From NCBI GenBank assembly GCA_963921195.1, contig OY992536.1, positions 289,187,530 to 289,251,529 on the forward strand: 64,000 nt of DNA, in the 5' to 3' direction. Origin of the DNA: Pegoplata infirma. Its lineage: Eukaryota > Arthropoda > Insecta > Diptera > Anthomyiidae. Position numbers and translations under genes: made by a program. Shown piece after piece: positions 21,862 to 58,150 of this stretch (positions are counted from its first letter, which is position 1; each line of letters starts with the position of its first letter). Under the pieces are notes generated by a model. It was given only the letters and a program-made list of their open reading frames with translations, had not been told where the DNA came from and made no database searches.

Positions 21862-24800
21862 TGGAATCGATATTTTTTTAACGAAAATTAGTTGTCGATG
21901 TATAAATAACAAAACTTTCTTCAGAAAAAATAACAACTCCTCATCTATAACAATTTTTCTATAGTTATCGATAGTAAATTTGTGTATAACAATTTCGACA
22001 ACAAACTTGTCTATAGAAAATAAGCTGTCGATTTATCGATAGAAAACTCTCCTAAAGGAAATTAATTGTTGATTAAAACTTTTCTATTGAACATTTTTTA
22101 TTGATGTGACGATAACAAACTTTTTCATTGAAAATTAGTAATCAATGTATCGATATTAACGTTTTCTCTAGAAATTTAGTTATCGATGTATCGATACCAA
22201 AATTTTCCAAAGCAATTTAGTTATTGATGTATCGATAACAAACTTTTTCATTGGAAATTAGTAATCAATGTATCGATATTAAAGTTCTCTCTAGAAAATT
22301 ATTTTTTAGAGTATCGATAACAAGCTTTTCTATAGATAATTAGTTATCGATATGTCGATAACAAAGTTTTCTATCGCAAATTAATTATCGATTAAAACTT
22401 TTCTTTGGAAAATTTGTTATTGGTGTGTCGATACAAACTTTTCTATAGAAAGTTAATTAACTTTTCTTCAGTAACTTAGTTATTGATGTATCGATACATC
22501 AATAACTAAGTTAACAAACTTTTGTACAGAAAACTAGTTCTCAGTGTATCAATAATTCTATAGATTACTTATCCATTGAAAATTAGTGGCTGATGCATCG
22601 ATAGCAAACTTTTCTATATAAAATTAGTTATCGACATCGAACTTTTTTATAGAAAAACAAACTTTTCTATTGACAATTTGTTATCGATATGTGGATAATA
22701 ATATTTTTAATAGGAAATTTATTATCGACAACAAACTTTAATATAGAATAATAGCAACATATGTATCGACAACAAACTTTTTTAAAGAAAATTATTTATC
22801 GATGTATCGAATAACAATCTTTTCTATAAAGAATTGGTTATCGATGTGTCGATAACAAACTTTTCTATAAAAAATTGGTTATCGATGTATCGATAACAAG
22901 GTTTCAGTAGAAAATTAGTTATCGATAACAAAATTTTTAAAGGAAACTAAACCGTTTTATCGATAACTGTAAAAATATAGTAACCGATGTAGCGATAACA
23001 AACTTTTCTGCAGAAAATTAAAAATCGATGAATCGATAACAAACTTTTCTGCAGAAAATTAAAAATCGATGAATCGATAACAAACTTTTTAAAGAAAATT
23101 ATTTATCGATGTATCGATAACAAACTTTTCTACAAAAAATTGCTTATCGATAACAAACTTTTCTATAAAAAATTGGTGATCGTTGAATCGATAACAAGAT
23201 TTCTATAGAAAATTAGTTATCTATAGCAAATTTTTCTATGAAAAATTAGTTATCGATATATTGATAACAAAAAATTAGTTACCGATGTATCGATATAAAA
23301 ATTTGCAAGAGAAAATTAGTTATCGATGTATCGATAATAAAGTTTTCTATAGAAAATAGGTTATCGATAACAAAGATTTCTATATTTCTACAGAAAAATA
23401 GTTATCGATAACAAAATATTCTATAATAAATTAGTTATCGATGTATCGATAACAAACTTGTTTATAGAAAATTAGTTACCCATCGATAAATCGATTAGTT
23501 ATCGATGCATCGATAGCAAAACTTTCAATAGAAAATTTGATATCGATATATCGATACCAAAATTTTACCAAAATTTTCGATAAACGATATCGATAACAAA
23601 TATTTCTATAGAAAATGAGATATCGATGCCAAAATTTTCTATAAAGAATACATTTTCTATAGCAAAAAAAAATTTATGGTTAAATAATTTTCTCTAGAAA
23701 ATATTTTTATCGATAACAAAATTTAATTTTCTATAGATATTTTTGTTATCGATTCATCAAAAACAAATTTTCTAAAGAAAATTCTATAGAAAATAAATTT
23801 TGCTATAACAACATCTATATCTAATTTTCTATAGAAAATTTAGAAAATTTTGTTACATCGATTTTCTATAGAAAAATATTGTTATCGATATATTGATAGT
23901 TAATTTTCTTAAGAAAAGATTGAGTTCGATATCTTATTTCTATTAAAAAGTATGTTATCAATACATCGATAACTAATTTTCTAAACAAATTTTAGTTATC
24001 CATATATAGTCATCAAATTTTCTATAGAAGAGTTTTCTATCGAAAATTAGTTTTCTATAGAAAGGTTTTTTTTATCGATACATTGATACATAATTTAATA
24101 TCTAAATGTTTGTTTCGATAACTATTTTTCTATGGAAAATAAGTCATCGATAACAACATTTTTTATAAAAAATAAATTAGTTATCGATAACAAAATTTTC
24201 TATAGAAAATCAATTAGTTATCGATGTATCGATAACAAAATTTTCTATAGAAAATAAATTAGTTATCGATGTATCGATAACAAAATTGTTCTAAAGAAAA
24301 TTAGTTAGCGATGTAACAGTAACAAAACTTTCAAAAGAAAATAAGTTGATGATGTATCGATAACAAACTTTTCTAAAGAAATAGTAAAGTACTTATCGAT
24401 AACAAACTTTTCTAAAGAAAATTGTTTATCAATGAACCAAATACAAACGCTTCTGTTGAAAATTAGTTATCGATGTAGCGATTACAAACTTTAGTTATCG
24501 ATAGCAAAGATTTCTATAGAAAATTGGTTATCGATACCAAAGATTTCTATATTTCTACATAAAATTAGTAATCGATGTATCGATAGTAAAATATTCTATA
24601 GAAAATTAGTTATCGATGTATCGATACCAAAATTGTCTATAGAATTTTAGTTATCGATTTATCGATTACAAACTTTTCAATGGAAAAAAAGTTTTTGATG
24701 TATTGAGAACAAAGTTTTCTACAGAAAATTATTTATGGATGAATGGATAACAAACTTTTCTTTAGAATATTAGTTTTATATATAGCTTATCAATCTTTCC

Positions 24801-24929
24801 ATAGAAAATTACTTATCGATGTATCGAAATCATCTACTTTGCTATTGAAATTAAGTATCGATAACAAACATATATAGAAAATTCGTTATCTTTAACAAAT
24901 TTTTCTTTAGAAAATTTATTGTTGATGTA
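21862..24929. repeat. Satellite 1, ~41-bp TATCGATA/TATAGA double-palindrome units, left block
   Basis: The consensus unit joins two palindromes, GTTATCGATGTATCGATAAC and TTTTCTATAGAAAA, with short spacers (AAAC on one side, TTAGTT on the other). The period is about 41 bp, and diverged units fill about 3 kb. Because both halves are palindromic, the array reads alike on both strands, and only the spacers give polarity. Polarity is mainly forward to about 23650, mixed with reversed units at about 23870-24130, then forward again. Many units carry TATCGATA, the Drosophila DREF/BEAF-32 core. No coding potential is seen. Confidence 0.9.
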
Positions 24930-24933
24930 TTTA

Positions 24934-25432
24934 CCCATTACTGCCTGCCTAAAGATCGGCTCGTACGATTTTGATGAAGTTTTGATATGTGTGCCTGGAA
25001 GACCACAGAAGTTGATAGAAAAAATAAAAAAAAATTTACCTCAGCTCCGACCTGAGATATGACATGGGTATTAGGCCGTGTAGTTTTTTACTTTAATTTT
25101 TTGTTTGAGCTGAAAGGGGTCCAAAAAGTTTCTATTGGGTGTCAAAATAACTCTAATAAATTTTCGTGAAAACCAAAATTGTCCTTACCCCCCCCGCATC
25201 GCGTTTTGGGTGCACTTTTCCTGAGTATTTTCGATTAAGAAAAATCGTCGATTTTTGTCAGTGAAAAACAAAAGTTAAACAAAACAAAAAAAAATCTTGT
25301 TAAATCTTGCCCAATCTCTTCTCTTTTTTATAAAAGAAGAATTAGCCCGATATCTTCCATCTAGCCCGCGCTAAATTTTTTTAAGTATCAACACTTTTTT
25401 GGGTATTTAAATACCCATTAGGCAGGAATGGG
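24934..25432. mobile_element. piggyBac-like MITE inside satellite 1, 499 bp
   Basis: The ends are CCCATTACTGCCTGCC and, inverted on the right, CCCATTCCTGCCTAATGG. The right end is followed by TTAA (25433-25436), and the left is preceded by TTTA (24930-24933), a one-base departure from TTAA. CCC..GGG ends at TTAA are the hallmark of piggyBac transposition. The body is clearly less AT-rich than the satellite around it and contains CCCCCCCCGC and TAAATACCCATTAGGCAGG near the right end. It has no transposase frame. Confidence 0.75.
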
Positions 25433-25436
25433 TTAA

Positions 25437-26242
25437 TAACAAACTTTACTATTGAAAATAAGTTATCGATAATAAACTTTCCATTGATAACTAATTTTCT
25501 ATAAAAAATTTGTTATCGATACATCGATATCGCATTTTCGATAGAAACATTGTTATAGATACCTCAACAGCTCATTTTCTTTAGAAAATTTGTTGTCGAT
25601 TAATCGATAACTCATTTTCTATAAAAAACTTGTTATCGAACTTTTTTATAAAAAATTAGTTATCAAAGTATCGATATCAAACTTTTTACAAAAAAAAAGA
25701 TATCGTTGAATCGATAGAAAACTTTTCCATAAAAAATATTGTTATCGATAACTTATGGCATTTAAAAAAGTTTGCTGTCGATAATTCGATAACTAATTTT
25801 CTAAAGAAAAGTTTTTTATCGATACTTCAATAACAAATTTTTTATAAAAAAGTTTGATATCGATATATCAATAAATATTGTCTATAAATATACCTATATA
25901 GAAAACTTATTATCGATACGTCGATAACTCTTTTTCTGTAGAAAATTTGTTATCAATAACTGACGTCCTTTTGAAAAGTTTGCTGTCGATAATTCGATAA
26001 CTAATTTTTATAGAAAAGTTTGTTGTCGATTCATCGATAACTTATTTTTTTTAGAAAAGTTTGTTATCAAGAAAATATTACCTATAAAAAAGTTTCTTAC
26101 CATTACATCGATCACTAATTTTCTATAGAACTCAACAAACTTTTCTGTCGAAAATAAGTTATGGATCTGTCAATAACAAACTTTTCTTTAAAAAATAAAT
26201 TTAAGTATAGTTATCGATATATCGACAACAATTTTTTCGGTA
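25437..26242. repeat. Satellite 1, right block, mostly reversed polarity
   Basis: After about 50 bp of forward units, the spacers switch to the reverse order from about 25490 on (ATCGATAACTAATTTTCTAT, then AAGTTTGTTATCGAT). The polarity flip lies just beyond the piggyBac-like insertion. The array fades out at about 26242. Confidence 0.85.
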
Positions 26243-26279
26243 AAGTTAACAACACATTTTTAAAGTTCCCAAATCTAGT

Positions 26280-26367
26280 TTAATATTGATTTAGCATTAA
26301 TCTGAAATCCGTTGAATCAATCGCCACTTTTGCTTCCTGCTGATATAGAGCTTTTGCTATTGTCTGC
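26280..26367 (-). CDS. Candidate terminal coding exon, minus strand
   Basis: Read on the minus strand, the tract GGATTTTTTTTGTTTTTTAA ends in TAG at 26370-26368, a good splice acceptor. The exon then gives one phase base and 28 codons starting QTIAKALYQQEAK and ending TDFRLMLNQY before TAA (26282-26280). GC content is near 40 percent, well above the surroundings, and residue use looks like a real soluble protein. I do not recognise the family. If correct, it is the last exon of a minus-strand gene whose earlier exons lie at higher coordinates. The 3' UTR would run towards satellite 1. No partner exon was identified in the window. Confidence 0.4.
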
Positions 26368-26370
26368 CTA

Positions 26371-26936
26371 TTAAAAAACAAAAAAAATCCTTTTAATTTA
26401 TTCTTATTTTTTTTTTAAATATCCTTTTTATTTGTATTTGAAACATTGTTTAACATATTAAACATTTGCGATACACACAGACACACAAACACATAAACCG
26501 CCCTATGTAAATAAAGTAAATATATGAACATCATATAAACACATGTAAATTTATTTTTTAACCATAAAAATTTATATCGTTATAGAAAATCTCCCGCCCA
26601 TTGTATTAAAATAAAAATGTTGTTTTCAGCTTTGGTTAGCAAACCTTTTTTTATTTATTTATTTGAATAATAGTATTATGGCTTACTGTGCGTATCTGTT
26701 TTTGTTGTTGCTTTTTCTCTATCTTTAAATACTATATGGGCATTATAGATTTTCCATTTATTAGACTTTTAGTACTATTTTAATAGTGTGTGTCATTAGA
26801 AAAGTGGCAATTCGGAAGTATTTTATGGGTGTGCGTGCGTGTGAATATCAAGTTTAATTTATAAGTTACATAATAATGTAACAAATGTTAAAATTTCAAT
26901 GTTAATAAAAGTTAGAATGAATAATACACATATGTA
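26371..26936. other. AT-rich probably single-copy DNA
   Basis: It holds short CA tracts (26470-26495) and GTGTGCGTGCGTGTG at 26829. If the exon at 26280-26367 is real, this is the intron upstream of it. Confidence 0.4.
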
Positions 26937-26939
26937 TAT

Positions 26940-27493
26940 GGAGAATTCCAAGCCAAATTGGACACCTTGAATCATTATTATTTCTGATTTTCCCAATTTT
27001 TGATCAGTTTTAAGTACTTTTTGAGTATTTGCCCCTCTAGGACGCAGCATTAAAGCAGTGGATCTGATATAAAATTAGAAACAAACTGAAAAAAAAAAAA
27101 TTTTCATGATCTTCCTGGGCAAAAAATTTGTAAAATCGAAAGGAGTTTAAAAAAAAAAATAAAAATAAAAAAAGTCATTAAGTAAAAACATTTTAAAAAA
27201 TAAGATTTAAAGATAAAAATTTTAAGATCGCACTATGGAACACTTTTAGTTTTTTTTTTTTAAGTATGTACATAAAAAACAAAAAAACTTTTGAATTTGG
27301 ACCATTTGTGAAGACGTTATGAGTAAAAGAAGTTTGAGTTAACAAACACGCTCCATATTTTGGAAATTTCGATATCTTTGGAACGGGTCATCAAAAACAT
27401 TTACCAGGAGGGAGTTTTAAAGGGTATTTAAAATTTTAAAAAAATTGGAAAAATCTAGAAAAAATTTTTGTTCGGTTTTACATGGAATGCCCC
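26940..27493 (-). mobile_element. Family D element, short form (~554 bp)
   Basis: The left end GGAGAATTCCAAGCCAAATT and the inverted right end GGGGCATTCCATGTAAAACC are imperfect terminal repeats. Interior blocks TTTTCCCAATTTTTGATCAG, GATCTTCCTGGGCAAAAAAT and GGAACGGGTCATCAAAAAC match the longer D copies. The central tandem section present in those copies is missing. Confidence 0.65.
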
Positions 27494-28280
27494 TTGTATA
27501 TTTCGGTTTAATACCATCAATTGCGTTTGAATTTGCAATAAACATAATAACTAAGTATTGATTTTTTTTTTGAATTTATACTTTTAGCTCTTATTTTAAA
27601 ATGTTGTGCCTAAAGTTTTAGGGTAAAACATTTGGGCTGGATTACTTAATATATAGTAAGCTGCTAAATAGGACAGTTACAAATATTTTTGTTTTTTAGT
27701 TTGTTTAAAATATATAGTAACATTGAGAAATATGACCTTAACTTTATAATAATTTTTTGAGTGTTAAAAGTCCTCCAAGGCGAATGATTAATATTTTATT
27801 ATTATTAACTAATATTACTCATATGCCACAATATACACGTAAAACTGTCAGCAAATGTCGCAAAATGTCGCATTAAAAGTGCTTCATGGCGAATGATTAA
27901 TATTTAATTATTTACTAACATTACTTATACGCACCCAGCAAAAACTTGGCAATGATGCATAGTGTGTAGAATTTTTATCCTTTTTTTTTTTTTTTAAATG
28001 GAAGGTTTCGGACTGACTTTGTCCAACTTTTTTTAAAATATCAAAATTTTTTACTCGTCAGAATTAATTGAAAATTTCAAGTCTTTAATTTTTTTTAGAA
28101 ATCTCTATTTTGAAAATTTGATTACTCAACACCAACTTGGTATACAAGACTGAAAATTTGAGTGAAGTTGCACTTGATATCCAAAAAAATTAATCCAAGG
28201 GGGTGGGGTCTAAAAGTGAGTGATTTGGCCTGGAATGCCAAAATATTCTTATATATCACATCTGATTTGAGATTTGGAAG
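27494..28280. repeat. AT-rich DNA with a duplicated GGCGAATGATTAAT block
   Basis: Segments at about 27770-27845 and 27878-27945 are imperfect direct repeats (CAAGGCGAATGATTAATATT and CATGGCGAATGATTAATATT, each followed by an ATTACTYATAYGC motif). A third relative is at 19398. The remainder has no recognised feature. Confidence 0.5.
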
Positions 28281-28599
28281 ATCAGTACTAGAGTTGTCAA
28301 TTATTCGCCTTTTTACTTTGTTCGAATTATTCAAATAATTGTTTTTGTTCGTTCGATCAAACGATCAAATCTTAAAAATTATTCGATTAATCGATGAGAA
28401 TAACGAATGAAAAAGTGGTTATTAAAAAAATATTTTTTTTTTTATTTAAAAAAAAAAAAATCATACAAAAAACTTAAAAATAAAATAATTAATATTTTAT
28501 AAAAAATAAATAAGCAAAAAACTTATAAATTGAATATACTTTTTTAAGTAAAAAATGCATAAAAAACTTAAATTTAAATAATTTTAAGTTTTAAGTTAG

Positions 28600-29759
28600 T
28601 CGATGTCGGCGGAGACGATTGAAGGACACTTTTACCCTCCTCATAAATGTTTACAAATTCATTTTTACGATATTTACGCCTAAAAAAACCATCATTATTT
28701 TGTATTATTTTCTAAAGCCACGCCCTTAAATGGGGCGGGCCTAACAAATAGCAAATTCCTAATTATCTTGGTCATTTGGACCAAGCAGGTCAATAAAAAA
28801 ATGTTGTAGGGTAAAAATAAATGGGGGTCGGTCTCACTAATAACCCCTCCCGGACGCACCATTGGACCGGTAGAAGCTGATTAAATAAAACAAATTTACA
28901 AAAAATAAAAAAAATTGTATGGGGACCGCCTTAACAGTTAAAGATAAAGGGTAGGTGTGTTCAGAGAAAATGTTTGGATTAAAAAATATTGTGGGTCGAT
29001 CATACATTTTGTTGCTCTAAGGGCACTATTAGGGCAGTTAGAGCGGTTGGAACAAATTTTTAAAAATGTCGTTTTGTGTGGGAGCCCCCTTAGAAATTGG
29101 AGATAGGGTATTAGTTTGTATCAAAGAAATGTTAAGACCTAAAAATTAATGGGGGTCGGTCTTATAAAGGACCCCTCTATGACGCACCATTGGAGTAGTA
29201 GAAATGATTTTAAGATTGGAAAATTACAATAAATTTTTTTCAAAAAATTTTAAAAAATAGTAATAATCGTTATCCCACGATCCTCCTGGGCAAAAAATTT
29301 GTAGAATTGTTAGAAGTTTTACACAAAAAAATTTCAAAAAAATCGAAGAGTACAAACATTTTCAAAAATGAGATTTAAATTTTAAAACTTTAAAATCGCA
29401 TACTAGAGCGCTTTTAAGAATTTTTTAGGATTTTTTTTTTAAAAGTACGTAAAAAAACAAAAATTAAAAAAAAAACAATTTGAAATTTGGACCATTATTG
29501 AAGAAGTTATGATTAAAAGAAGTTTGAGTAAAGGAGCAAACTACCAATTTTTCAAAATTCGATATCTTTTGAACGGGTCATCAAAAAATCTGAAAATTTA
29601 CCACGAAGGAGTTTTCGATGGGTACTAAAAACTGTTAACAAATTAGGAAAATCTAAAAAAAAATTTTTTCAATGTGTCCGATTTGACATGGAATGCCCCA
29701 TATATTCTTAATGGGGTCCTAGACCAGTATTTCGATACTGTAGTTGGAGGGTATAAAAA
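28600..29759 (+). mobile_element. Mini-me/DINE-like type B copy inside K, split by D
   Basis: The B internal block CCACGCCCTTAAATGGGGCG is at about 28718-28737. The B 3' end (TTAATGGGGTCCTAGACCAG, then TGTAGTTGGAGGGTATAAAA) is at 29707-29759. The D element lies between them. The 5' end is degraded and was placed only approximately. Confidence 0.6.
28760..29697 (-). mobile_element. Family D element with ~165-bp internal tandem units
   Basis: The right terminus, inverted, is GGGGCATTCCATGTCAAATC at 29697. Towards the other side, three related units of about 165 bp start near 28823, 28992 and 29153, each with a GGGTCGGTC-like start and a CCATTGGANNGGTAGAAG-like or GGCAGTTAGAGCGGTTGG block. The left terminus is not clear. 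The same units occur inverted at 34800-35130. Confidence 0.6.
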
Positions 29760-29903
29760 AAATTGTTCGATTAATTGACTATTAATTTAATCGATTTATT
29801 CGTTATTGGAAAATCGTCAATTTAAAATTAATCGAACAAGAGTTTGGGTTTTTTGATCGATTAATCGAGTTATTCTTAATCGGTTGACAACTCTAATAAG
29901 TAC

Positions 29904-39089: not shown

Positions 39090-39450
39090 GAGGTCGAAGA
39101 TTCCAATTGTAATTCGAAAAATATAAACTGTATTTCCATTGATATTTTTCGAATTACAATTGGAATCTTCGAATTACAATTGATCTTTTACGAATTACAA
39201 TTGATCTTATTCGAATTACAATTGATCTTTTTCGAATTACAATTGATCTTTTTCGAATTACAATTGATCTTTTTCGAATTACAATTGGAATCTTCGAATT
39301 ACAAATGGAATCTTCGAATTACAATTGGAGTTTTCGAATTACAAATGGAATCTTCGAATTACAAATGGAATCTTCGAATTACAAATGGAATCTTCGAATT
39401 ACAAATAGAATCTTCGAATTACAATTGATCTTTTTCGAATTACATCTGTA
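39090..39450. repeat. ~20-21-bp minisatellite (CAATTG / TTCGAA units)
   Basis: About seventeen units alternate CAATTGATCTTTTTCGAATT and AAATGGAATCTTCGAATTAC variants. Each unit holds the palindromes CAATTG and TTCGAA. The 82-codon repetitive open frame (ELQ repeats) at 39180-39428 is a product of the tandem period. Confidence 0.85.
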
Positions 39451-42114: not shown

Positions 42115-43107
42115 CAAGTAGAAAAGTTAAATTCGACTTTGCCGAATCTATGAATACCCTCCACAATGCCTTTTTTAAAGGATAGTACATTTTAACGTGA
42201 AAAAAATTAACAATTTTGATTAGAAATATTTTATTTTGTAAAAAAAGTAAAAAACTCTTTTTTTGTCATTTAAAAGAAAAATTACTATTTTTTTTTTTGA
42301 GTGTAAAACTTTTTTTTGAGTGTAAAGTTTTTTACTTTAAAAATATTTCTGAGTGAATGCACGTACGTAAGTACACAAAATATTGACAATTTTTGTAAAA
42401 AAACTAAATTTTTTTGAGTGTAAAATTTTTTTTGAGTGCAAAATTTTTTTCGAGTGTGAAATTTTTTTCGAGTGTAATTTTTAAGTTACCAATGCTTTTA
42501 AAACTAAACAAGTTTAAAAAGCATTGCTTTAAAACTAAACAAGTTTGAAAAGCATTGCTTAATTACCAGCAATGCTTTTAAAACTTGTTAAAACACGTGG
42601 CATTTAAGATGAACAAAATCTGAAATTCGGGGTTTTGCTTATAACTTTTGAACCACTTTACCGATTGCGATGAAATTCGATACCAAACAGACGTGAGGAA
42701 CGGTAAAGATATATGCAACGTTTCAGCAGTCTCATTATTTTTCGAAAGTTATCGTGTTTTTTATCTCGTAAATTTGCAAAAACCCCTTGCCGAAATTTAC
42801 TCTTTTGCTTATAACTTTTGAACCACTGCACCGATTTGGCTGGATTGCAATACGAACCTGACCAGGTAAATGACCAACATATATGCCAAACTTCAGTAGC
42901 CTCTGTGAAGTCTTTCAAAAGTTAGCGTGGTTTCTACGGACGGACAGACAGACAGACGGTCGGACGGACATCGCTAGATCGACTCAAAATCGAACGAGGA
43001 TTATGAATATATATACTTTATGGGGTCCTAGACCAATATTTCGATGTGTTACAAACGAAATAACAAACTTATATATACCCTCTATCACTAGAGTGGAGGG
43101 TATAAAA
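42115..43107 (+). mobile_element. Mini-me/DINE-like element, type A, complete, inside H
   Basis: It runs from CAAGTAGAAAAGTTAAATTC to CTATCACTAGAGTGGAGGGT plus ATAAAA. Internal order: TTTTTTGAGTGTAAAA motifs, two CTTTTGAACCACT blocks, a GACAGACAGACGG core, ATCGCTAGATCGACTCAAAA and ACTTTATGGGGTCCTAGACC. This is the cleanest type A copy. H sequence continues across both junctions. The open frames at 42658-42918 and 42883-43134 are repeat-derived. Confidence 0.88.
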
Positions 43108-43715: not shown

Positions 43716-45774
43716 TTTATTCTGCTTAAATCTGCTCTAAAAAGACACATGAATTCACTGCATCTTTGTAGCGTTTTTTCCGCGCTCTAAAGAGATGTAA
43801 ATTCAGAGCATCTTAAGAGCGCTTTTTCGGTGTATCCAACTAGCGCTCTAAAGTGTGATATCGCCTTAATGAATCATGCATGAATTCAGCAGGTTTGGAT
43901 GCGCTCCTTGACTCGAGTTTCCTTTCCAAAAGCTGCTGCCAGTTCAGCAAAATTTCTGCTGGGTAGTGTATAAAATTATATTTTTTTTTAAATATTTTAA
44001 CTTATTGTCTTTTAAATAACCTTTTAAGAATGTATACACAAAAGGCTTTCTATATAGCCTCAAAGTTAATATGGACTATGTTACATTTTACCCAAACAAA
44101 GCTTAATAAGTTTTTGTAAAAGAAAAGGCAAAAAAAAAAACTTGAAACAACAAGGCTTAAAAATACATATTTCTTTAACTGCCCACACACATTTTGCAAA
44201 TAAAGTTTTTTTCCAGCAAATGTTAATTGTTTTACCCACCACTACTACTATACCAGAACAACAGCAACACTAACATATACAAATTAATCTTTAGTAACAG
44301 TATATTGAAAAGGAAACACTTTAATTACACTAGTTTACAGAATTGTTTCATGTAAAATCTCGAGTCCGAAAATGAAGTCCAAAATAAAAAAAAAAAGTGA
44401 AATCATTTTTCAGATATTGCTAACTTTTCAAATTTTAAATTTTTAAAAAAAGTGGTTTTGCTTAAATAAATTGTTTCAAATTTCATTTATCGCTTTACAG
44501 TGCAAGTTTGATCCATTTACGAAGAAAATAAGAGGGTTTTTACAACAAAATTTTTGAAATTTGTTCAGAATCAACTCGAAATTTTACATTGAAAATAAAT
44601 GTAAAATGTCGTGTATCAAAGTCTCTGTGAACTTGTGTTATCTATATGTGCGTGCTGTTAGAAAAGCATGAATAAACAAAAAAAAGTGTTCAAGTATTAA
44701 GTGTTTGCCTAGTTATGTATGTGTGATTTCCTTTTAAGTAAACATTTTTTTTGTTTCTTTATTGTAGTGTTTTTCTCGAGAATTTCTTCTTTAACTTTTG
44801 ACCTTTTTGTTGTTGTTCTTTATATTTTTTTTCTCTTTTTTGCACAAATTCATTAACTCATAGTAAATATAATTTAAATACTATTTAATATGGTGGCAAA
44901 CACATACAAATGTTTATAGAGGCACGTTTATATTTTCTATAATAGATTTGCCTAATTTTCTTCACAAATTGTTTTCTTTTATTTTCTTTGCCTTTTGGTT
45001 GCCTACTTAAAAATCAGTTTGAATTCTTGTTAAATTTTCTACTTGAGTTATAATCGTAAACAGCAAAAAATGTCCTAATCTTGAATATTTAAGAGTATTT
45101 TCTCATTTTGATTTAATGCCTTGTAAATTATTCAAATTATGTTTCGTTCGTATTTCGCAGAATTTTAATAAATTTTCACTTTTCTGTATTTTTAACTCTT
45201 TTTGTTTAATAAAGAAGAAGAAGTAATAAAACAGCTTGTAAGGATTTTAAAATGAAAAAAGTAATTGGTTTTTGCTAAAAGAGAAAATCAATGTCATAAT
45301 GGCCAGGGGCGTACTCAATTGATTTGTATTTGCTTTCTTCCGATTGAAAAGGAGTATGTTGGAAATACTTATTAGCAATTCATTGAAAAAAAAATCTTTA
45401 GCAAAAAATTTCTGAAATCAATAAATTATTCTTAAGACTTAGAATGTTAAAGTTTTTCTAAAGAAAAACTGCCTCAGAGGCTGACATTTTTTCTGAAGGA
45501 AAAATGTTGCAGAAACTTTTGAGAAAATTTTATCCAATTTTATTTTTTATACCCTTCATTAAAAATTTTAAGAATAATCAGTAGTTTTTACTTACAGAAC
45601 AAAAATAAATGATTTTAAAAATTAAATGTTAATGAAAGTCTTTATTTTTTAGTGAGTTATTTTTGAAACAAAGGACAGAAGTAGTCATTAATAAAAACTG
45701 AACATCAAACAAATGTTTTTCATTTAAAAAAGACTAAACGTAAAACTTTTTAAATAAACTACAAACAGTTAATG
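43716..45774. other. Largely single-copy AT-rich DNA
   Basis: This is the longest stretch without a recognised repeat. It includes four direct variants of GCGCTCTAAAGAG near 43770-43860. No splice-flanked coding frame, RNA gene or promoter signal could be supported. Confidence 0.4.
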
Positions 45775-46085: not shown

Positions 46086-46094
46086 TTAACATAA

Positions 46095-46212: not shown

Positions 46213-47189
46213 ATTAATATAATTATTTTTCAACAACATTTTTTTTTTTTTCATCATATTTTTTTCAAATTTTGTATTACATAAGTATTTTTTTTTTCAT
46301 CAATTTTTTCATTAGTTTTTTGACATTAGTTTTTTTGTTTTCAACAATTTTTTTTTTCAAAATTTTTTTTTTTTTTTTTCATAAATTTTTTTTTCATCAA
46401 ATTTTTTATTACATCAATTTTTTTTCACCAAAATTTTTTTTTTTCAATTTATTTTTCATTAAACATTTTTATCAAATTTTCTATTACATAAATTTTTTTT
46501 CTTCATTTTGTTTTTTTTTAATTATTTTTCACCAAAATTTTATACATTTTTTTTATAATTTTTTTTTCATTAAAAACTCTGTTTTCATCAATTTTTTTTT
46601 TTTGTGTTTTAAATACTTTTTCTTCAAAAAAATTCTTTTTTTTGATAAAATTTTTTTTCATTTCTGAAAATTGCCAAATTTTTTGAAAGCATAAACTCTA
46701 TGAGTATTTGATGGGAGAATATCCTAATAAAGAAAGTAGAGTTAACATAAATAAGTACTTGTAATGTTAATTCGTAATGGGGAAATTGACATCGAACTGG
46801 AATAAACTATATTTCATAAAAAAACTTTTATCAAAAATTTAGTTTTTTTTTATCAAAAAATTTTTTTTTTTAGTCAATTTTTTTTATCAAAAATTTGTTT
46901 ATTAAGTTTTTATTACATACATTTTTTCTGAACAATGTGTTTTCACATTAGTTTTTTTTTCATAAAATTTTTTTTCATCAATTTTTTTTATCAATTTTCT
47001 ATTTTCATCAAATTTTTTTTTATAAATTTTTTTTTTGTAACAAAATTTTCATATCATTTTTTTTACATCAAAAAAATTTTTATGTCATTAAATTCTTTTT
47101 TTTTATCATTAAATTCTTTTTTTTATCAAAATTTTTTTTTTAGTTTTAAATTTTTTTTCAAAAATTTTTTTTCTTTATTAAAAATTTTT
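46213..47189. repeat. T-rich low-complexity tract with TTTTTTCATCAA motifs
   Basis: Poly(T) runs are punctuated every 15-35 bp by CATCAA, CATTA or CACCAA. The 131- and 111-codon phenylalanine-rich frames here are a direct consequence of the T runs. It may be an expanded part of the TTTTTTGAGTG-type sequence of mini-me elements. Confidence 0.65.
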
Positions 47190-47237
47190 TATACCCTCCA
47201 CTTACAAGAAAGGTCTTTCACAGGGCACACACCGATA

Positions 47238-49984: not shown

Positions 49985-50160
49985 ATAGAAAAACATTTAA
50001 GCTTTTTTAAAAAAATATGTGGACGGATTTTTGATAAATTATTTTTTTTTAAATAAAAAATTTCAGAATAGGTTCTAAAAATTTTACAAAATGTTGTATG
50101 GGTTTTTTGGTAATAAAAGTTGTAAATTAAAAATCTACATTTATGTATATTTAATATAGT
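49985..50160 (+). mobile_element. Family D-like fragment
   Basis: GTGGACGGATTTTTGATAAA, TTTCAGAATAGGTTCTAAAA and AAATCTACATTTATGTATA parallel 35330-35460 with many changes. Confidence 0.4.
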
Positions 50161-50499
50161 TTTTTATTTTTCCTTTCGATATTTCGACCAGTCATTGATG
50201 GTTTGTAATAATAATAGTTTTTTTTTTGATCACATGATCAATTATTTTTATTTATTCTTTCTATTATTTACAACTCATTTTTAATAAATTCAACCTAACC
50301 GAGAACTGGTAACAATGACCGTCGCACATTGGGTTCAAATGGTACCAAAGTGGCGATTAATTGAAATTTATAAATGAAGCTTTTGTTATAAGTTTTGGTA
50401 TGGGGTAAAAGTAGATAAAATTCTGCAACGCTAGTTATCAAAATCAATAAACTAAGTTGTTTACTTTTTTTTCGGTGAGCTGTCAAAGTTAGCAAATTA

Positions 50500-51716
50500 C
50501 ACTGCGTGACAAAAGTGACCACTATTTTAGAAAACAAGAGGTACGACCGTCATTTCTATATATTTCGGACATGCTGAATCGAATGGCGTACTCCGTTTTT
50601 CGATGTATGGTACAGTTTTCTTGCAAAATGTCGTTAAAGATTTGCTGATTTCGAGCCAGTTTTTCAACAAAAAAATTTGCAAAGTTAATAATTTTTAAAT
50701 TGTATGGCATGAAAAATAAAGATATGACTTGTAGCAATATTTCTTATGCCAATTTGGTTTAAAGCTTTTCATCTTAAGCCCTTAAATTCGCGAATTTATT
50801 AATTTTTTGAGGTTTTCGCGAAATTAACCGCCAAGTTGGTCTTTGATTAAAAACTTGCTTTTAGTGAATCAACAAGACATCCCTAACAATACGAATAGTG
50901 GACAAAAAACAGCTATGTTTAATGGACCATCATGATGAAAATCGCGAAAAACCGTTTTTTTGTATATGCCAGCATCACATTACGAGGTGATTTAAGACTC
51001 CATCTTTTAGTATATAATGTAGGATTCTTAAACAATTAACTGACCAAAAATTTGGCCAAAAAAGTTTTCATTTGCAAAAGTTATCTTAACAAAAACTATT
51101 ATTTCAGTGTTAACCCTACAATAATTATAGTTTTTGTTAAGATAACTTTTGCAAATGAAAACTTTTTTGGCCAAATTTTTTGGTCAGTTAATTGTTTAAG
51201 AATCCCACATTATATACTAAAAGATTGAGTCTTAAATCATCTCGTAAAGTGATGCTGGCATATACAAAAAAACGTTTTTTCGCGATTTTCATCATGATGG
51301 TCCATATAACATAGCTGTTTTTTATCCACTATTCGTATTGTTAGGGATGCCTTTTTGATTCACTAAAAGCAAGTTTTTTATCAAAGACCAATTTGGCTGT
51401 TAATTTCGCGAAAACCCTAAAAAATTAAGAAATTCGCGAATTTAAGGGCTTAAGATAACAAGCTTTGAACCAAATTTGGATAAGAAATATTGCTAAAAGT
51501 CAGATCTTTGTTTTCCATGCCATAGAATTTATAAATCATTATCTTTGCAAATTTTTTGGTTAAAAAACTGGCTTGAAATCAGCAAATCTTTAACGACATT
51601 TTGCAAGAAAACTGTACCATACATCGAAAAACGGAGTACGCCATTCGAATGAGCATGTCCGAAATATATAGAAATGATGGTCGTAACTCTTGTTTATTTT
51701 TTAGTGTTCCGCAGTG
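50500..51716. mobile_element. Near-perfect foldback element J inside O, TTA duplication, 1217 bp
   Basis: The ends are CACTGCGTGACAAAAG and, inverted, CACTGCGGAACACTAAAA, flanked by TTA (50497-50499, 51717-51719). Two arms of about 600 bp pair with few mismatches around a short centre near 51115 (CCCTACAATAATTATAG). Landmarks such as CATCGAAAAACGGAGTACGC occur on opposite strands in the two arms. The 71-codon frame at 50522-50737 is repeated in the opposite arm and not supported as coding. Confidence 0.85.
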
Positions 51717-52120
51717 TTATTGCAGTCTTTGAAAAAAGTTAAAAAATTCAAATTTTTTACAATTCAAGCGATTATTAGTAGTATTAAATCTTTTAAAAGA
51801 AAATCTTTTATAATGGAACCTTAAACAACAGGTATTAAACTAAATTGCAAAATTTTTTTTGTTTATAAAAATTGGGTCGTAACATTTTTAATAATTTTTT
51901 TAAAAAGGACCCGAAATTGGGATATTTTCCCCATTTAATGGGCTACACATATTAAGTTAGTAATAGTTGGATTTAGTTTTGTGGATTTTAAAAAAGTATA
52001 GGATATCAGCTTTTATTTAAAAGAAAAAAAAGTACAGACAATGCCCGGCCCTTTTTTTTTATTCCCGTTTTTGTGTAAAAAGTCTGGGTATCGTTTATTA
52101 AACAAGACCATAATATGTGT

Positions 52121-52735
52121 GTTTATACCCTTCAACTACGGTATGTATATTATTGATCATTATTATTGACCATAAAGTGTATATTATTGATCACTGATCG
52201 ATTCTAAGACATTCTGTGACTAACAGTGTGTCCGTCCGTCCGTCTGTTGTTGGGCACACCATAAAGTACATAAAACAAGAGCTAGAATCCTGAAGTTTGT
52301 CACACATATGTATAATGGTCATAGGCTGGTTAAGTTCTTGAACGAGCAAAATCGGACCAGGGGGGAAAAAGTTCCCCCTTGAAGAACTAAAACTACCCCA
52401 GAAAAATATTTTTTTTACAAGTTTTATTTGTATATTTGTTCAATAAATGAAACATTTTAATGCCATATGAAGTTCATCGACCTGAATTTGAACCAAGGGG
52501 GATCAGGAAAGCGAATTTTTTCTGTCCGCCCCTTTTTGGGGGCGTGTATAGAAAAAATAATTTAAATAATGATAAATTTTTATTAATTAGGTGCAAACAA
52601 TTACATCTATTTTGTTGGCAACGTTTATCGCGAGGGGAAGGTGTCCCCCATAGTCTCCCGGTAAACCCCCCACCCGCTACGCCAAAAAAACGTCCCCTCC
52701 ATTTGTTTTTTGTAGCTTTATTATATGTTCAAGTG
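52121..52735 (-). mobile_element. Type B copy inside O, 5' truncated
   Basis: It starts TTTATACCCTTCAACTACGG, then CGTCCGTCCGTCTGTTG, GAAAAAGTTCCCCCTTGAAG, CCGCCCCTTTTTGGGGGCGT and a C-rich block near 52660. The GGGTATCAAAGATTCGGC end seen in other copies is absent. The 104-codon frame 52460-52774 crosses the element boundary and is not a gene. Confidence 0.65.
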
Positions 52736-53283
52736 TTTCGTGTTTTTTTCCAAAAACAAAAAAAAAACGACTAAAAGATTAAAAAAAAAACATTTTGTTA
52801 AATTTTTTTTTCTCAAATGCTGTGTTTTTATGTATTTTTGATAATTCGTTAATAAAAAACTACAATATTCCCATAAATCACTTTTTTCAGATAAATTTGT
52901 ACATTTATGAGATTTTGTGAAAAACAAAAATTGGATGTTAAATAAAATTTAAAATAATATAAATACATATTGTGCATCCTTTCTTTGATTACTTTGATAG
53001 CACATTATGTACACTTTAATTTCCATTTTTTTTTATTAATTTATCGCTTTTCATTCCAAAGTTACAGCAAAAATTGTGAACTATAACCCTTTTTTCCGAA
53101 AAACAAAAAAACGCCTAACAGGTTAAAAAATTTGTTTTTTTCTAATTTTTTTTTTTCCAAAATGTGTATTTTTACGTGTTTATATTAGTTCATTAATAAA
53201 AAAATATAATATTCTAAAACTACTGCTTATCTGAATTAATCGCCATTTTGGGTACCATCGAACCCAATGTGCGTCGTCTCGTT

Positions 53284-53372
53284 GTAGCGAAAAAAACCAA
53301 GGGTTCTGGTGGAAATCGAACCCTCGACCGCCACGTTGAAAGGCTAGCACGCTACCAACTAGCCTACGAGGG
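53284..53372 (-). repeat. tRNA-like sequence beside element O
   Basis: On the minus strand TAGGCTAGTTGGTAGCGTGC resembles a tRNA D-arm/A box, and GTCGAGGGTTCGATTTCC a T-arm/B box, with CTTTCAA between them like an anticodon loop (TTC). The anticodon and acceptor stems do not pair properly, so a tRNA pseudogene or SINE head is more likely than a working tRNA. Confidence 0.45.
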
Positions 53373-53499
53373 CCCCCAAATCATTGATGGTCATCATTAA
53401 GGTATTTAAATCATCAGGGTATTTATTATTAATTACTAAAGCAAAGGTTTTAATCAAAATAAAGTATTTATTTTGGTCAAAATTTTTGAAAAAAAAAAT

Positions 53500-53592
53500 G
53501 TTCACGTTAGAAATTTTTGCTATCACTTAAAAAGGGCATTGTGGGGGGTATTCATGGAATCGGCAAAGTCGAATTTAACTTTTTGCATTGTT
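53500..53592 (-). mobile_element. Mini-me/DINE-like end fragment
   Basis: GTGGGGGGTATTCATGGAAT and GGCAAAGTCGAATTTAACTT with TTTTGCATTG match the CAAGTA-type terminus on the minus strand. The remainder of the element is not recognisable. Confidence 0.5.
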
Positions 53593-53951
53593 TTTAATTA
53601 AAAGGCACAAATTAAGGGGGTAGGTAATACCTCAAAAAAAAAATTTATCTGGGCACTTTAGTATTGAGTCCTGTTTTCCAATTCTTTTCCATACAATTGG
53701 TTATTTAAACAATATGGGCATTGTTTAAATTATACGGCTTTATATTGAGAAATAAATGTGAAGGCATGTTGACCTGTACATTGTTTTATGTTTGTATTTA
53801 TTTATTTTTTTAATTTTTTCCATTGTATTGACTGGCAAGTAGTCAGAAAATTCATTCATTAAGTTTTACTAAAAAGCAACCAACAACAACACCATCATAT
53901 TCTGTGAGTATTTAAGTGGGGTAAGTGACAAAAGTTCTTCATTCATAAACA
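53593..53951. other. AT-rich DNA, no supported feature
   Basis: A short frame near 53835-53910 ends at a GTGAGTAT donor-like site, but it lacks a convincing acceptor. Confidence 0.3.
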
Positions 53952-54434
53952 CACTCAAAAAAAAATCTTGTAAAATTACCAAAAAAACATCGTAAAATAA
54001 TTGCTACCTCGTATTTCACTTGAGTTCCTAGTAAAATTACAATATTATTTGTAAAAAGCTTAAAATTACAAAAAGTTTACAAGCTTTTTACATATAAAAT
54101 TGTAAATTAACAAATTTTTTTGAGCTATAAAAATTACAAAAATTACTAGGTTTTTTTGTAATTTTACAAGTATTTTACTAATAAAATTGTAAATTTTTCA
54201 ACTTTTTTGATGCGGTAAGACTTCAAGGAATTCTCGTGACTTAACTAGATTTTTTTTTGTAAAATTGCCTTGGAAGTTTGTACATTTACGAAAAAAATTT
54301 GTAAAAGTACAAAAAAAAAAAATTAAAATTCGATCAAAAATTTTTTTGCAAAAAAACACAGAAAACTGTCAAATATTGGAAAAATAGAATTACGGTACTT
54401 TTTCTAGAAATTTGACAAGATTTTTTTTTGAGTG
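53952..54434. mobile_element. MITE family W, full copy, 483 bp
   Basis: The ends CACTCAAAAAAAAATCTTGT and, inverted, CACTCAAAAAAAAATCTTGT agree over about 20 bp. The interior has TTACAAAAAGTTTACAAGC and GTAATTTTACAAGTATTTT pieces. The flanks are CA and GA, not TA, so the target duplication is either decayed or of another type. A right-half fragment is at 13195. Confidence 0.75.
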
Positions 54435-54496
54435 GAAGAAACAAATTGTTGTTCGTGCTGTGCAAGTTTTCAGTGTTATTATTAACTATGCTTATA

Positions 54497-54767
54497 CACT
54501 CAAAATAATATTTCAGCAATGGTTTGAGGGAAATTTTTCAATTGTTGCTCATAAATTTTGATAGTAAACTGATTTAAGTAATTAAAATTTTTATTTATTA
54601 ATAATAGGAGACCGCCAAAAATGTTGTCGCAAAATTTTTAAAACAAAATTTTTTTTTGTAATTTAACAAAGTTTTTTTCACTGATTAATGAGTTACTATA
54701 AATTAAAAAGCTTAGGACAAAAAATAAAAAGTTTTTCGGAGACCATTACTAAAACAATTTTTGAGTG
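54497..54767. mobile_element. Possible small MITE with CACTCAAAA ends
   Basis: CACTCAAAATAATATTTCAG on the left and, inverted, CACTCAAAAATTGTTTTAGT on the right enclose 271 bp. The left flank is TA and the right flank TT. Only the outer nine bases match well. Confidence 0.35.
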
Positions 54768-54959
54768 TTCTCTTTGTTTCTTGTTTTTTAACATTAATAT
54801 AAGATTTAGAGAGAGCAAATTTTAATACGAGGAAAGAGAGATTAAATACAGGGTGATCTAACTTGGGCTTTTAATTTTTTAATAAAAGTGAACTAATAGC
54901 TTCAAATCCTGATAAATTTTTACCAAAGAAAAACATTTTTTAAAATACTGTATTTTAAG
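54768..54959. other. AT-rich DNA, no feature recognised
   Basis: Nothing is supported in this short stretch. Confidence 0.3.
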
Positions 54960-55170
54960 TAGGGTTCTTCTAGCTCGAGGTCAGTTTTTTTACTAATTAA
55001 AACACTGGTATTCTGATTTTTTTAAATTTTATTTAGGTTAGTTATTTTTGCTTGATTTAGCAGTCACGTGTTTTGACCTCGTTTAGATCTTGTCAAGATT
55101 ACTTTGCAAAATATCATCAACATGATCCTATTTTTGCAAAAAAAGAAAGCAATGGGAATGCTATAAAATC
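54960..55170 (+). repeat. Family H copy, diverged and shortened
   Basis: TCTTCTAGCTCGAGGTCAGT opens the head, and GTCACGTGTTTTGACC corresponds to the CGACACGTGTTTCGG block. Several internal deletions are evident. Confidence 0.55.
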
Positions 55171-55307
55171 ATAAAATTTAGTATGTTTTGCCAAACCACT
55201 GCAGCCAGTCAAAAAACAGAGACCTCCTTAAACGGAGCTTTGTTTTTTATGATCATATTTCCGTTTAGATCAATTTCTTTAATTTGTTTTTAAAGAATAT
55301 GTTACAG

Positions 55308-55444
55308 TTTCTATGTAGACAAAGTCTCAGATTCTAAAACATTTGTCGTATGAAAAAATCTAAATCTGAGAATTTTTTTAATAGAATAAATTCTTCCAAC
55401 ATAGAAAAAATCAAAGTCTCAGACATTTTTTGTTAAAAAAATAA
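55308..55444. repeat. Satellite 2, left outlier block
   Basis: Diverged CAAAGTCTCAGATTCTAAAA units belong to the array at 56330-58150. MITE Y separates them from the main block. Confidence 0.65.
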
Positions 55445-55446
55445 TA

Positions 55447-56326
55447 CATTCAAAATAATACATTAGTATATTTACTATATTTTTTTACTAATGCTGGTTA
55501 ACTAACTTTTAGCAAATTTTTAGTTGAGATTAACATGTTAGCAAAAATATCTTATAAACTTCATTTAGCGCATTAGCAATTTTAAACAAAATTTGAACTA
55601 ATTTTTTTTGCTAAATTTAAAATTGAGTTGACCAAATTTTTACAAGCTTTTTTGCTAACATTAGCAAAAATAAATGGTAATTTTTTTTTTATTTTCAGAA
55701 AACCAAAAATGGCGCTATCTCGGGAACTAAGCCAGATAGAGCAAAATGGAGGCCATTTTTGGTTCTCGGGCTCTCGCCGGTCCTCTTCACATGTGTGGAC
55801 CCTAATGGGTCCTAACTTTGGATCCAAAAAAGTTAGCATTCCCGAAAATTTTAAAATGCTCATATCTCGGTAAATATTGCCGACACAACAAAAAGTCCAA
55901 AAGCATTTTTGTAGCTCTCAACACGTAGAACAAGACCGCCAGATAATCAAAAGCTCTCCGAGTAATATTTTTGAAGTTATCGAGTTTTGTAATTCTCAAA
56001 AACCCCGGTGGTCCCCTAAAATCACGTATCTCAAAAACTAAGCAAGGTAGAGCGAAACGGACACAAATTTGGATCAAAAACTGTGAAGATTTTTCAGGAA
56101 CCCAACTAGGTCTAGGCCCATCGGGGTCTGGACCTATAGGGTCCGAACCCAATGGGGTCCTCAAATGTGTATGAACTAAGTTGAAATAAAAAAATTTCAG
56201 TTAACTAATTTTAATCAAAACGTTTTTGCTAGCTTTACCAAAAAAATTGTGGGTTCGAAATCAGCAAATTTTCTTGTACGTTTACAAGTTTTTTTTTGCT
56301 AACTTTACAGTTTTTTTTTTTGAGTG
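55447..56326. mobile_element. TA-flanked element Y with a GC-rich interior, 880 bp
   Basis: The right end TTTTTTTTTTGAGTG and left end CATTCAAAATAATACA are weak inverted repeats, flanked by TA (55445-55446, 56327-56328). The subterminal parts carry many TTAGCAAAAA and inverse motifs. The centre (55705-56165) is much less AT-rich, with two ATCTCRRGAACTAAGC/ATCTCAAAAACTAAGC-like blocks and several ATGGGGTCCT-like motifs. Overlapping frames of 81-120 codons on both strands occur there. Because both strands stay open over the same bases, I do not call a gene. Confidence 0.6.
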
Positions 56327-56329
56327 TAT

Positions 56330-58150
56330 AGGAAAAATGTCTCAGAAGCTGAGAAACGAAAAATGTCTCAGAATCTGAGAGTTTTTTCCTATAGAAAAAT
56401 TTCCTATAGAAAAATCCTATGAACTTTTTTCCTCAGAAAAAGTCTCAGATTCTTGAACCTTTTACTATAGAATAAGCCTCATACTCTAAAGCATTTTTGG
56501 TATATTTTTCATATAAAAACGGTATCAGATTCTTAAATTTGTTTCGTATAGAAAACTTTTAGATTCTAAGAACTTTTTTCAATAGAAAAAGTCTCAGACT
56601 CTGAGACCTTTTTCCTATAGGAAAAATTTCAGACTCTAAAACAAGGCTCAAATTCGAAGATTCTGATATCTTATTCCTACAAAAAAAGTCTATGATTCGA
56701 AGACATTTCTTCTATCAAAAAACTCTTAGATTTTAAAACCTTCTTACAATAGAATAAGTTTCAACTTCAGAGACATTTTTTAACAAATAAAGTCTCAGAC
56801 TTAAGACATTTTCCTTTAGAAAATGTTTCAGATTGTGAGACTTTTTCCTATACAATAAGTCCGACATTCAGAAGACCTGAGACCTTTTTCCTATAGAAAA
56901 TGTTTAAGATTCTTAGGCATTTTTCCAATAAAAATATTCTCTGATTCGGAGACATTTTTCCTATAGAAAAAGTCTCAGATTATGCAACTTTTTTCAAATA
57001 GATACAGTCTTCAATTCTGAGACATTTTTCCAATAGAAAGTTTCAGATTCTAAGTATTTTTTTCTATAGAAAAAGTCTCAGATTCTGCGACATTTTTCCT
57101 ATAGAAAAAGTATCATATTCTGAGACATTCTGCCTATAAAAAAAGTTTTAGATTCTGAAATATTTTTCTTATAATAAAATTGTCAGATTCTGAGACATTT
57201 TTCCTACAAAAAAAGTCTCAGATTCTGAGAAATTTTTACTATAGAAATAGTCTCTGATTCTGAGACATTTTTCCTATAGAAAAAGTCTGATATTCTGAGA
57301 TATTTTTCCTCTAGAAAGTCATTTTTTCTGTAGAAAAAGTCGCAGATTCTGAGACATTTTTTCTATAGAAAAATTCTCAGATTCTGAGACATTTTTCCCG
57401 CTGAAAATGTCTCAGGTTCTAAAACATTTTCCCAAAAGAAAAAGTCTTAGATTCTGAGACATTTTTCTTATAGAAAGTTTCTGAGACATTTTTTTCTATT
57501 GAAAAAGTTTCAGATTCTGAGACAATTTGCCTTGTCGCAGATTCTGAGACATTTTTCCGATAGAAAAGTTTCAGATTTAGATACATTTTTTCTATAGAAA
57601 AGTCTCAGATTCTGAGACATATTTCCTATAGAAAAGTTTCAGATTCTGAGACATTTTTCTACCTTCTTCTGAGACATTTTTCCTACCTTCTTGCAATAGA
57701 ATAAGTTGCAATTTCAGAGACTTTTTTCAACAGAAAAATTCTCAGATTTTAAGACATTTCCTTTAGAATTAAAATTAGTCTGAAATTAAGTGGATCTGGG
57801 GACTCAAATTCTCAGATTCGGAGATATTTTTCTTATAGAAAAAGTCTCAGCTTCGGAGATAATTTTCCTTTAGAAAAAGTCTCAGATTCTGAGACATTTT
57901 GCCTACTGTAAATCTCTCAGATTGTGAAGCATTTTCCCAATAGAAAAAGTCTTAGATTCTGAGACATTTTTCTTATAGAAAAAATCTTAAATTCTGTGAC
58001 ATTTTTCTTATTGAAAAAGTCTTAAATTCTGTGACATTTTTCCTACATAAATAGTCTCAAATTCTGGACATTTTTCCTATAGAAATTTCGCAGATTCTGT
58101 AACATTTTTTCTATAGAAAAAGTCTCTGATTCTGAGAAATTTTTTCATAT
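56330..58150. repeat. Satellite 2, ~35-bp CTCAGATTCTGAG/CTATAG double-palindrome units
   Basis: The consensus unit joins GTCTCAGATTCTGAGAC to TTTTTCCTATAGAAAAA, with a period near 35 bp. About fifty diverged units are expected from the length, and the middle (57000-57650) is the most regular. Like satellite 1, both halves are palindromic, and the CTATAGAAAA half is essentially shared. Confidence 0.9.

What the first reader, a model, noticed from the sequence alone, without database searches (positions are those of the whole stretch)
21862..58150. Two long satellites share one palindromic half and differ in the other
Satellite 1 (21862-26242, ~41 bp) pairs a TATCGAT..ATCGATA palindrome with TTTTCTATAGAAAA. 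Satellite 2 (55308-58150, ~35 bp) pairs CTCAGATTCTGAG with TTTTTCCTATAGAAAAA. The shared CTATAG palindrome suggests modular satellites in which one half is kept and the other swapped. It could also mean convergent amplification of a hairpin-prone unit. I know of no described family with this architecture, but I could not search.
Basis: partly seen in the sequence, partly recalled or inferred. Interest (0 to 1): 0.8.

Follow-up and report, generated by a model that had tools for sequence, protein, structure and literature searches.

The report
Double-palindrome satellites sharing one half
One large genome carries many tandem-repeat arrays whose short units each hold two palindromes, one nearly constant and the other differing between families, which offers a way to study how such repeats start and spread.

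Summary
In detail: satellite 1 (94 units, 41 bp) and satellite 2 (56 units, 35 bp) lie where stated. Each unit is nearly its own reverse complement (36 of 41 and 32 of 35 bases). A tandem array of such a unit must have two palindrome centres half a period apart, so "two halves" is geometry; what needs explaining is the shared half. The window alone was only suggestive (P 0.002 to 0.04). The source genome added more. Of 20 evenly spaced 10-kb pieces of one contig, 6 held arrays with the CTATAG half, 5.9% of the bases; so did 1 of 3 pieces of a second contig. Of 64 palindromic cores CTATAG has the most clustered sites. Of 33 arrays, 9 were clearly self-complementary and all 9 carry it, with partners of GTTATC..GATAAC or TCAGA..TCTGA type. 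No common flanking element was seen and isolated CTATAG palindromes are not enriched. Best reading: one satellite superfamily with a constant palindrome and a differing partner.

The parts
21862..26242 (.). Satellite S1: 94 units of a 41-bp unit with two palindromes (GTTATCGAT-GT-ATCGATAAC and TTTTCTATAGAAAA), centres mostly 20 and 21 bp apart
21862..23640 (+). S1 segment, forward orientation (score 1750 against 1176)
22472..22513 (.). 42-bp perfect palindrome inside S1 whose arms carry the same non-consensus letters; suggests a fold-back copying event, but 12 to 14 of 300 arrays with shuffled units reach this length
23660..24120 (-). S1 segment, inverted (258 against 374)
24150..24930 (+). 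S1 segment, forward (856 against 552)
24931..25437 (.). Element inserted into S1: inverted ends 24928-24946 / 25420-25438, 89% complementary, TTTA/TTAA next to CCC; piggyBac-like by inspection
   Evidence: type is inference
25740..26070 (-). S1 segment, inverted (228 against 354)
55308..58150 (+). Satellite S2: 56 units of a 35-bp unit (GTCTCAGA-T-TCTGAGAC and TTTTTcCTATAGAAAAA), centres mostly 17 and 18 bp apart
55445..56325 (.). Element inserted into S2; ends TACATTCAAAA and TTTTGAGTGTA seen by eye
   Evidence: ends not tested
45438..45530 (-). About two units related to S2 outside the array (best stretch 45457-45517, E 6.7e-11, 38.6 bits; best of 30 random controls 10.0 bits)
5056..5083 (-). 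Fragment resembling S2 (15.9 bits; best control 10.0 bits)

Best explanation
S1 and S2 belong to one satellite superfamily. Each unit (33-47 bp) is nearly its own reverse complement, so it has two palindromes half a period apart. One (T4-5 C TATA G A4-5) is nearly constant; the other belongs to one of at least two sequence groups (GTTATC..GATAAC; TCAGA..TCTGA). Shown: the shared half, its spread in the sampled genome, differing partners and linkers, arrays of different ages, neutral-looking decay inside S1 and S2. Inferred: a unit that folds on itself is amplified in a burst by replication slippage, fold-back copying or rolling circles; the array then decays with little homogenisation; units with intact palindromes are the ones that found new arrays; the partner changes by template switching inside the hairpin.
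For: Self-complementarity of both consensuses, none of up to 300 shuffles as good. All 21 array consensuses tested are self-complementary at P 0.03 or better. Of 64 cores between T4 and A4, CTATAG has 142 clustered sites in 6 of 20 regions; TATATA (131) and TCTAGA (104) fit the same arrays in shifted register, by my inspection; then TTATAA 54, TTTAAA 49 (14 regions), ATCGAT 22 (one region, where it is the partner), GTATAC 7, median 0. As an exact hexamer, CTATAG reaches 5 copies in 400 bp in 4 of 20 regions; the next core with C or G, TTGCAA, in 2, four others in 1. 9 of 9 self-complementary arrays carry CTATAG, against 3 of 24 others. In 14 S1-type consensuses the CTATAG half is identical in 10, while each linker takes 10 different forms. 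The pattern for the S1 partner has 6080 + 5657 places against 1 + 0 for the reversed control. Old arrays fit a burst: pairwise identity is that expected from independent columns (0.723 and 0.730 against 0.719 and 0.729), nearly flat with distance, with no significant edge decay. Founders of ten younger arrays score 0.56-0.78 for self-complementarity; single old units average about 0.25. Nine single strands from S1 and S2 fold with z -7.4 to -1.3; four background pieces near 0. Inverted segments in S1 and, by inspection, in L056.
Against: No compensatory changes in the arms within S1 or S2 (P 0.14 to 0.73 in five tests), so no selection on folding is visible inside arrays. Pairwise identities vary more than with permuted columns (sd 0.090 and 0.102 against 0.074 and 0.076) and S1 has a few near-identical units, so decay is not purely star-like. 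Founders of young arrays may descend from other young arrays, which weakens. A unit with one palindrome is already partly self-complementary, so searches are partly built in. The sample is 224 kb of 1.38 Gb, from two contigs, and the 9 arrays come from 6 loci. Two small arrays in the window (3261-3335, 42493-42560) are self-complementary without CTATAG. The 42-bp palindrome is not beyond a shuffle null. No swap intermediate was seen.
Confidence: 0.55

Rival explanations
1. The units are, or derive from, very short transposable elements with ends TAGAAAA..TTTTCTA. CTATAG is the junction between neighbouring copies; different elements share the ends and differ inside. Arrays arise by insertion into their own junction or from circular intermediates.
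For: It would explain a constant CTATAG half with a variable interior. S2 has two small relatives outside the array in the window. Satellites from MITEs, foldback elements and Helitrons are described (PMC12628747, PMC4079207, passages seen).
Against: Isolated CTATAG palindromes are not enriched (6 in 200 kb, rank 14 of 64 cores), and flanks of 12 arrays share no common sequence at the edge, apart from three short matches of 22-62 bp among L025, L029 and L042. No S1 copies outside the array in the window. No Pfam domain in the 10 reading frames tested.
Confidence: 0.2
2. A DNA-binding protein holds the palindromes constant: the arrays are binding platforms. S1 would bind DREF- or BEAF-32-like proteins; an unknown dimeric factor would bind the CTATAG half.
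For: S1 has 148 CGATA on both strands (33.8 per kb against 1.28 in background), 45 TATCGATA, and 3873 of 4381 bases in clusters of at least 3 CGATA in 200 bp, the BEAF single-element definition (PMC2605929, passages seen). The C and G of the full TATCGATA core are better kept than the other C/G columns (144 of 168 against 496 of 670, P 0.001).
Against: Against the C and G of the CTATAG half the difference is not significant (P 0.16) and against the mirror core it is P 0.036, uncorrected. S2 has 2 CGATA. Palindrome columns are hardly better kept than linkers within S1 (0.83 and 0.86 against 0.82).
Confidence: 0.13
3. Coincidence: unrelated hairpin-prone units amplified independently and happen to share CTATAG in an AT-rich genome.
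For: Within the window the similarity is modest (P 0.04 when T/A-run flanks are taken as given) and nothing beyond the CTATAG half is alike (P 0.26). One IMG/VR contig and eight bacterial contigs also hold repeated CTATAG palindromes, found because I searched for them.
Against: CTATAG cores are rare among background palindromes of the window (1 of 544 with arms of 4 or more, 0 of 174 with arms of 5 or more), yet lead in arrays of the genome sample.
Confidence: 0.1

Closest known systems
TIR-220 satellite from the foldback element Tetris, Drosophila virilis (PMC4079207, passages seen)
   Same: Tandem units linked to inverted repeats; neighbouring units about as alike as distant ones
   Different: About 220-bp units inside terminal inverted repeats of an element; here 33-47 bp, self-complementary units and no element found at the edges
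Macro-dyad satellites of Tribolium (PMC13081366, passages seen)
   Same: Arrays switch orientation, as in S1 and L056
   Different: There the symmetry lies in kilobase subarrays of putative (peri)centromeres; here every unit is itself self-complementary and arrays are spread along the sampled contig
Dyad-rich centromeric DNA of Kasinathan and Henikoff (as described in PMC9070824, passages seen)
   Same: Short palindromes able to form cruciforms
   Different: Not limited to one place in the sample; PMC9070824 reports that dyads are not common at most D. melanogaster centromeres
Satellite library model (recalled)
   Same: A set of related satellites amplified at different times
   Different: Here relatives share one half-unit and differ in the other
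CTATAG-containing tandem repeats of house fly and relatives (recalled, untested)
   Same: A TTTTCTATAGAAA half beside another sequence
   Different: Could not be checked: no fly collection is on hand, and it is from memory

Membership tests
Satellite DNA | Head-to-tail tandem arrays, many copies | tested here: met
Satellite DNA | Heterochromatic or centromeric location | not testable with these tools
   No karyotype or chromatin data; arrays occur at several places along contig C1
One superfamily with a shared half | Shared half over-represented across arrays with different partners | tested here: met
   224-kb sample only
One superfamily with a shared half | Intermediate or hybrid units showing a swap | tested here: inconclusive
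   None among 21 array consensuses; the genome-wide CTATAG-pair search did not complete
MITE or foldback derivative | Dispersed single copies | tested here: inconclusive
   Isolated CTATAG palindromes not enriched; no S1 singles in the window, but two small dispersed S2 matches
MITE or foldback derivative | Common flanking or terminal sequence at array ends | tested here: not met
   12 arrays, up to 1.2 kb of flank where at least 150 bp was held; only three short matches near edges
MITE or foldback derivative | Target-site duplication | not tested
   Array edges too decayed to place exactly
BEAF-32 binding cluster | At least 3 CGATA in 200 bp | tested here: met
   S1 only: 3873 of 4381 bases; S2 has 2 CGATA in all
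BEAF-32 binding cluster | Protein bound in vivo | not testable with these tools
   No chromatin data
Macro-dyad satellite | Inverted subarrays of one unit | tested here: met
   S1; L056 by inspection of forward-strand consensuses and junction

The most novel reading that the evidence does not exclude
The CTATAG palindrome is an amplification module: a fold-back or replication-start signal that turns whatever partner palindrome lies beside it into tandem arrays, so that the genome holds a library of satellites with exchangeable partners and selection acts at the moment of amplification, not within arrays.
Probability: 0.3. Interest if true: 0.82.

Novelty: new variant of a known kind. Interest (0 to 1): 0.62.

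Why it matters
How new satellites start and why some sequences amplify is an open question. A superfamily with one nearly constant and one variable palindrome, in arrays from 84% to 97% identical to their own consensus, lets one ask which part of a unit is needed for amplification. If the sample holds, such arrays make up several per cent of a 1.38-Gb genome (5.9%, bootstrap 1.2-11.7%).

Tried and rejected
Compensatory change in palindrome arms: none beyond permutation in five tests. Edge decay: not significant (rho 0.04 and 0.21). Local homogenisation: identity nearly flat with distance, apart from a few near-identical units in S1 and more spread than permuted columns. Common flanks: left against right flank of S1 gave only matches of about 30 bp or less, of S2 two dispersed direct repeats of 113 and 60 bp far from the edges; among flanks of 12 arrays the longer matches (53-133 bp) lie 422 bp or more from an edge, and three of 22-62 bp lie nearer, at L025, L029 and L042. 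An inverted repeat around the 45.4-kb S2 relative looked like an element, but about 59 such pairs occur in 29 kb, so it was dropped. The wider claim that self-complementary arrays are common in the window failed: 4 of 37 at P 0.05 or less, two of them S1 and S2. An ungapped version of the test was superseded. Counts of the CTATAG half with up to 4 changes overcount in S1 and were not used. Rfam: 0 matches. Pfam: 0 for 10 frames of 58 listed. IMG/VR patterns: 0, 0, 0, 0 and 1 match. Paper searches for letters of the units found 4 and 3 papers, none on satellites by title; topic searches showed no description of this superfamily in the rows listed, which were a part of the papers found.

Selection: the 20 loci were chosen by me from the places printed, favouring clusters; they are not a random sample. 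The 20 regions and the 3 were set at round coordinates beforehand. One search used 21 arrays picked from these loci and the window; one search used ten of them as younger arrays.
Full report
Observation. Both arrays are there. A wraparound alignment gives 94 units of 41 bp for S1 and 56 units of 35 bp for S2, each 84% identical to its consensus on average and 72-73% pairwise. Palindrome centres alternate, mostly at 20 and 21 bp in S1 and at 17 and 18 bp in S2. Each array is broken by an inserted element, and S1 has at least two inverted segments.

Geometry. Each consensus is nearly its own reverse complement as a circle: 36 of 41 and 32 of 35 bases, better than all of up to 300 dinucleotide shuffles. 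A tandem array of a self-complementary unit has exactly two palindrome centres per period, half a period apart. So two palindromes per unit is one property, not an assembly of two modules. What needs explaining is that one centre is alike in both.

Similarity within the window. The CTATAG halves match better than random palindromes (P 0.002), less clearly if T-run flanks are taken as given (P 0.04). Whole-unit nulls give 0.006, 0.016 and 0.003; beyond the CTATAG half nothing is alike (P 0.26). CTATAG cores are rare among background palindromes of the window: 1 of 544 with arms of 4 or more, 0 of 174 with arms of 5 or more. S2 has two small relatives elsewhere in the window, S1 none. On this evidence alone shared origin was open.

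Source genome. The genome search answered once. The window lies at C1:289187530-289251529 of a 1.384-Gb assembly, and a 22-base pattern from the S1 partner half, with up to 2 mismatches, has 6080 + 5657 places against 1 + 0 for the reversed control. I fetched 20 of the printed places, favouring clusters. All 20 hold a CTATAG-type half within 2 changes, though it was not in the pattern; exact CTATAG is in 17 of 20, and two of the other three (L023, L036) have CTTTAG; periods differ (33, 39, 41, 47 bp). In 14 S1-type consensuses (11 from these loci, one from the window, two from L042) the CTATAG half is identical in 10, while the linkers on each side take 10 forms.

Unbiased sample. Of 20 evenly spaced 10-kb pieces of contig C1, 6 hold CTATAG arrays, in total 11783 of 200000 bases (5.9%, bootstrap 1.2-11.7%). 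Of 3 pieces of C2 one does. Partners: the S2 type in L040, L043, L053, L055 and L060; GTTATCGATAAC and GTTATCGATGGATAAC in L042; TGTCAGAAATTCTGACA in L056. Among all 64 palindromic cores between T4 and A4, CTATAG has 142 clustered sites in 6 regions. TATATA (131) and TCTAGA (104) fit the same arrays in shifted register, by my inspection; TTATAA has 54, TTTAAA 49 in 14 regions, ATCGAT 22 in the one region where it is the partner, GTATAC 7, and the median is 0. As an exact hexamer CTATAG is clustered in 4 of 20 regions, TTGCAA in 2, ATCGAT, ATGCAT, ACCGGT and CCTAGG in 1 each. Of 33 arrays with at least 4 copies in 224 kb, 9 are clearly self-complementary and all 9 carry CTATAG; 24 are not and 3 of those carry it. 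The 9 come from 6 loci, and the two properties are not fully independent.

Ages and decay. Arrays range from 84% to 97% identity to their own consensus, and the consensus of old S2 and of the younger L053 array is the same. In S1 and S2 mean pairwise identity is that of independent columns, nearly flat with distance between units, and does not fall significantly at the edges: mostly a burst followed by decay. Against a pure star, pairwise identities spread more than with permuted columns and S1 has a few near-identical units. Palindrome arms show no compensatory change. Founders of ten arrays at 91-97% identity score 0.56-0.78 for self-complementarity; single units of S1 and S2 average about 0.25, and 0.8% to 5.9% of them reach the founders. 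This suggests that intact palindromes matter for founding arrays, not for keeping them. The founders may however descend through other young arrays.

How it may work. Single strands of the arrays fold well (nine pieces of S1 and S2, z -7.4 to -1.3; four background pieces near 0). Self-folding units can stall replication and be copied by slippage or fold-back. Inverted segments in S1 and L056 (by inspection), an odd-centred palindrome at the L056 junction read by eye and a 42-bp perfect palindrome in S1 with mirrored non-consensus letters fit this. The last is reached in 12 to 14 of 300 shuffles. These steps are inference.

Rivals. A transposon origin is possible, but isolated CTATAG palindromes are not enriched and array flanks share nothing beyond three short matches near the edges. 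Protein binding is possible for S1, which is dense in CGATA and TATCGATA (definition from passages of PMC2605929), but S2 lacks them and conservation within S1 is only weakly structured. Coincidence is disfavoured.

Known kinds. Of Tetris (PMC4079207), Tribolium macro-dyads (PMC13081366), centromeric dyads (PMC9070824) and the review PMC12628747 I saw passages. None of those passages describes self-complementary units with a constant and a variable palindrome. My searches cover open-licence papers and showed only part of what they found.

Noticed in passing
L001-L008, around the match: Seven Lachnospiraceae and one Clostridiales metagenome-assembled genomes (several labelled rumen or omasum) hold 2-3 copies of TATTTTTCTATAGAAAAA 32-33 bp apart with a variable spacer, like a bacterial operator pair.
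   Followed up: partly
L009:248-446: A 150-kb IMG/VR contig holds a 49-bp tandem repeat with a CTATAGG half beside GGGTCCCCTGGAACCC; self-complementarity P 0.06.
   Followed up: partly
window 3261-3335 and L046:1120-1184: A 27-bp hairpin repeat (TTCACCA..TGGTGAA) seems to recur in another sampled region, by eye.
   Followed up: no
window 8174-8362, 42290-42477, 61924-61974; L044, L051, L053, L057, L059: Short 18-bp tandem arrays TTTTTTTTGAGTGTAAAA recur across the sample; similar letters end the element inserted in S2.
   Followed up: no
window 46242-47192; L040:7261-7554, L046, L058: T-rich arrays built on TTTTTTTTCATCAA-like units recur, by eye.
   Followed up: no
L040:8152-9743 and L053:6058-7473: A satellite of about 24-25 bp with GATAGGTCCTTTTGAT lies within 10 kb of an S2-type array in both regions.
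   Followed up: no
window 39148-39427: A 20-bp satellite TTCGAATTACAATTGGAATC, borderline self-complementary (P 0.03 and 0.06).
   Followed up: partly
window 20324-20380: A weak S2-like stretch, 11.1 bits, just above the best control of 10.0.
   Followed up: no
window 24931-25437: Inserted element with CCC ends next to TTTA/TTAA, piggyBac-like by inspection.
   Followed up: partly
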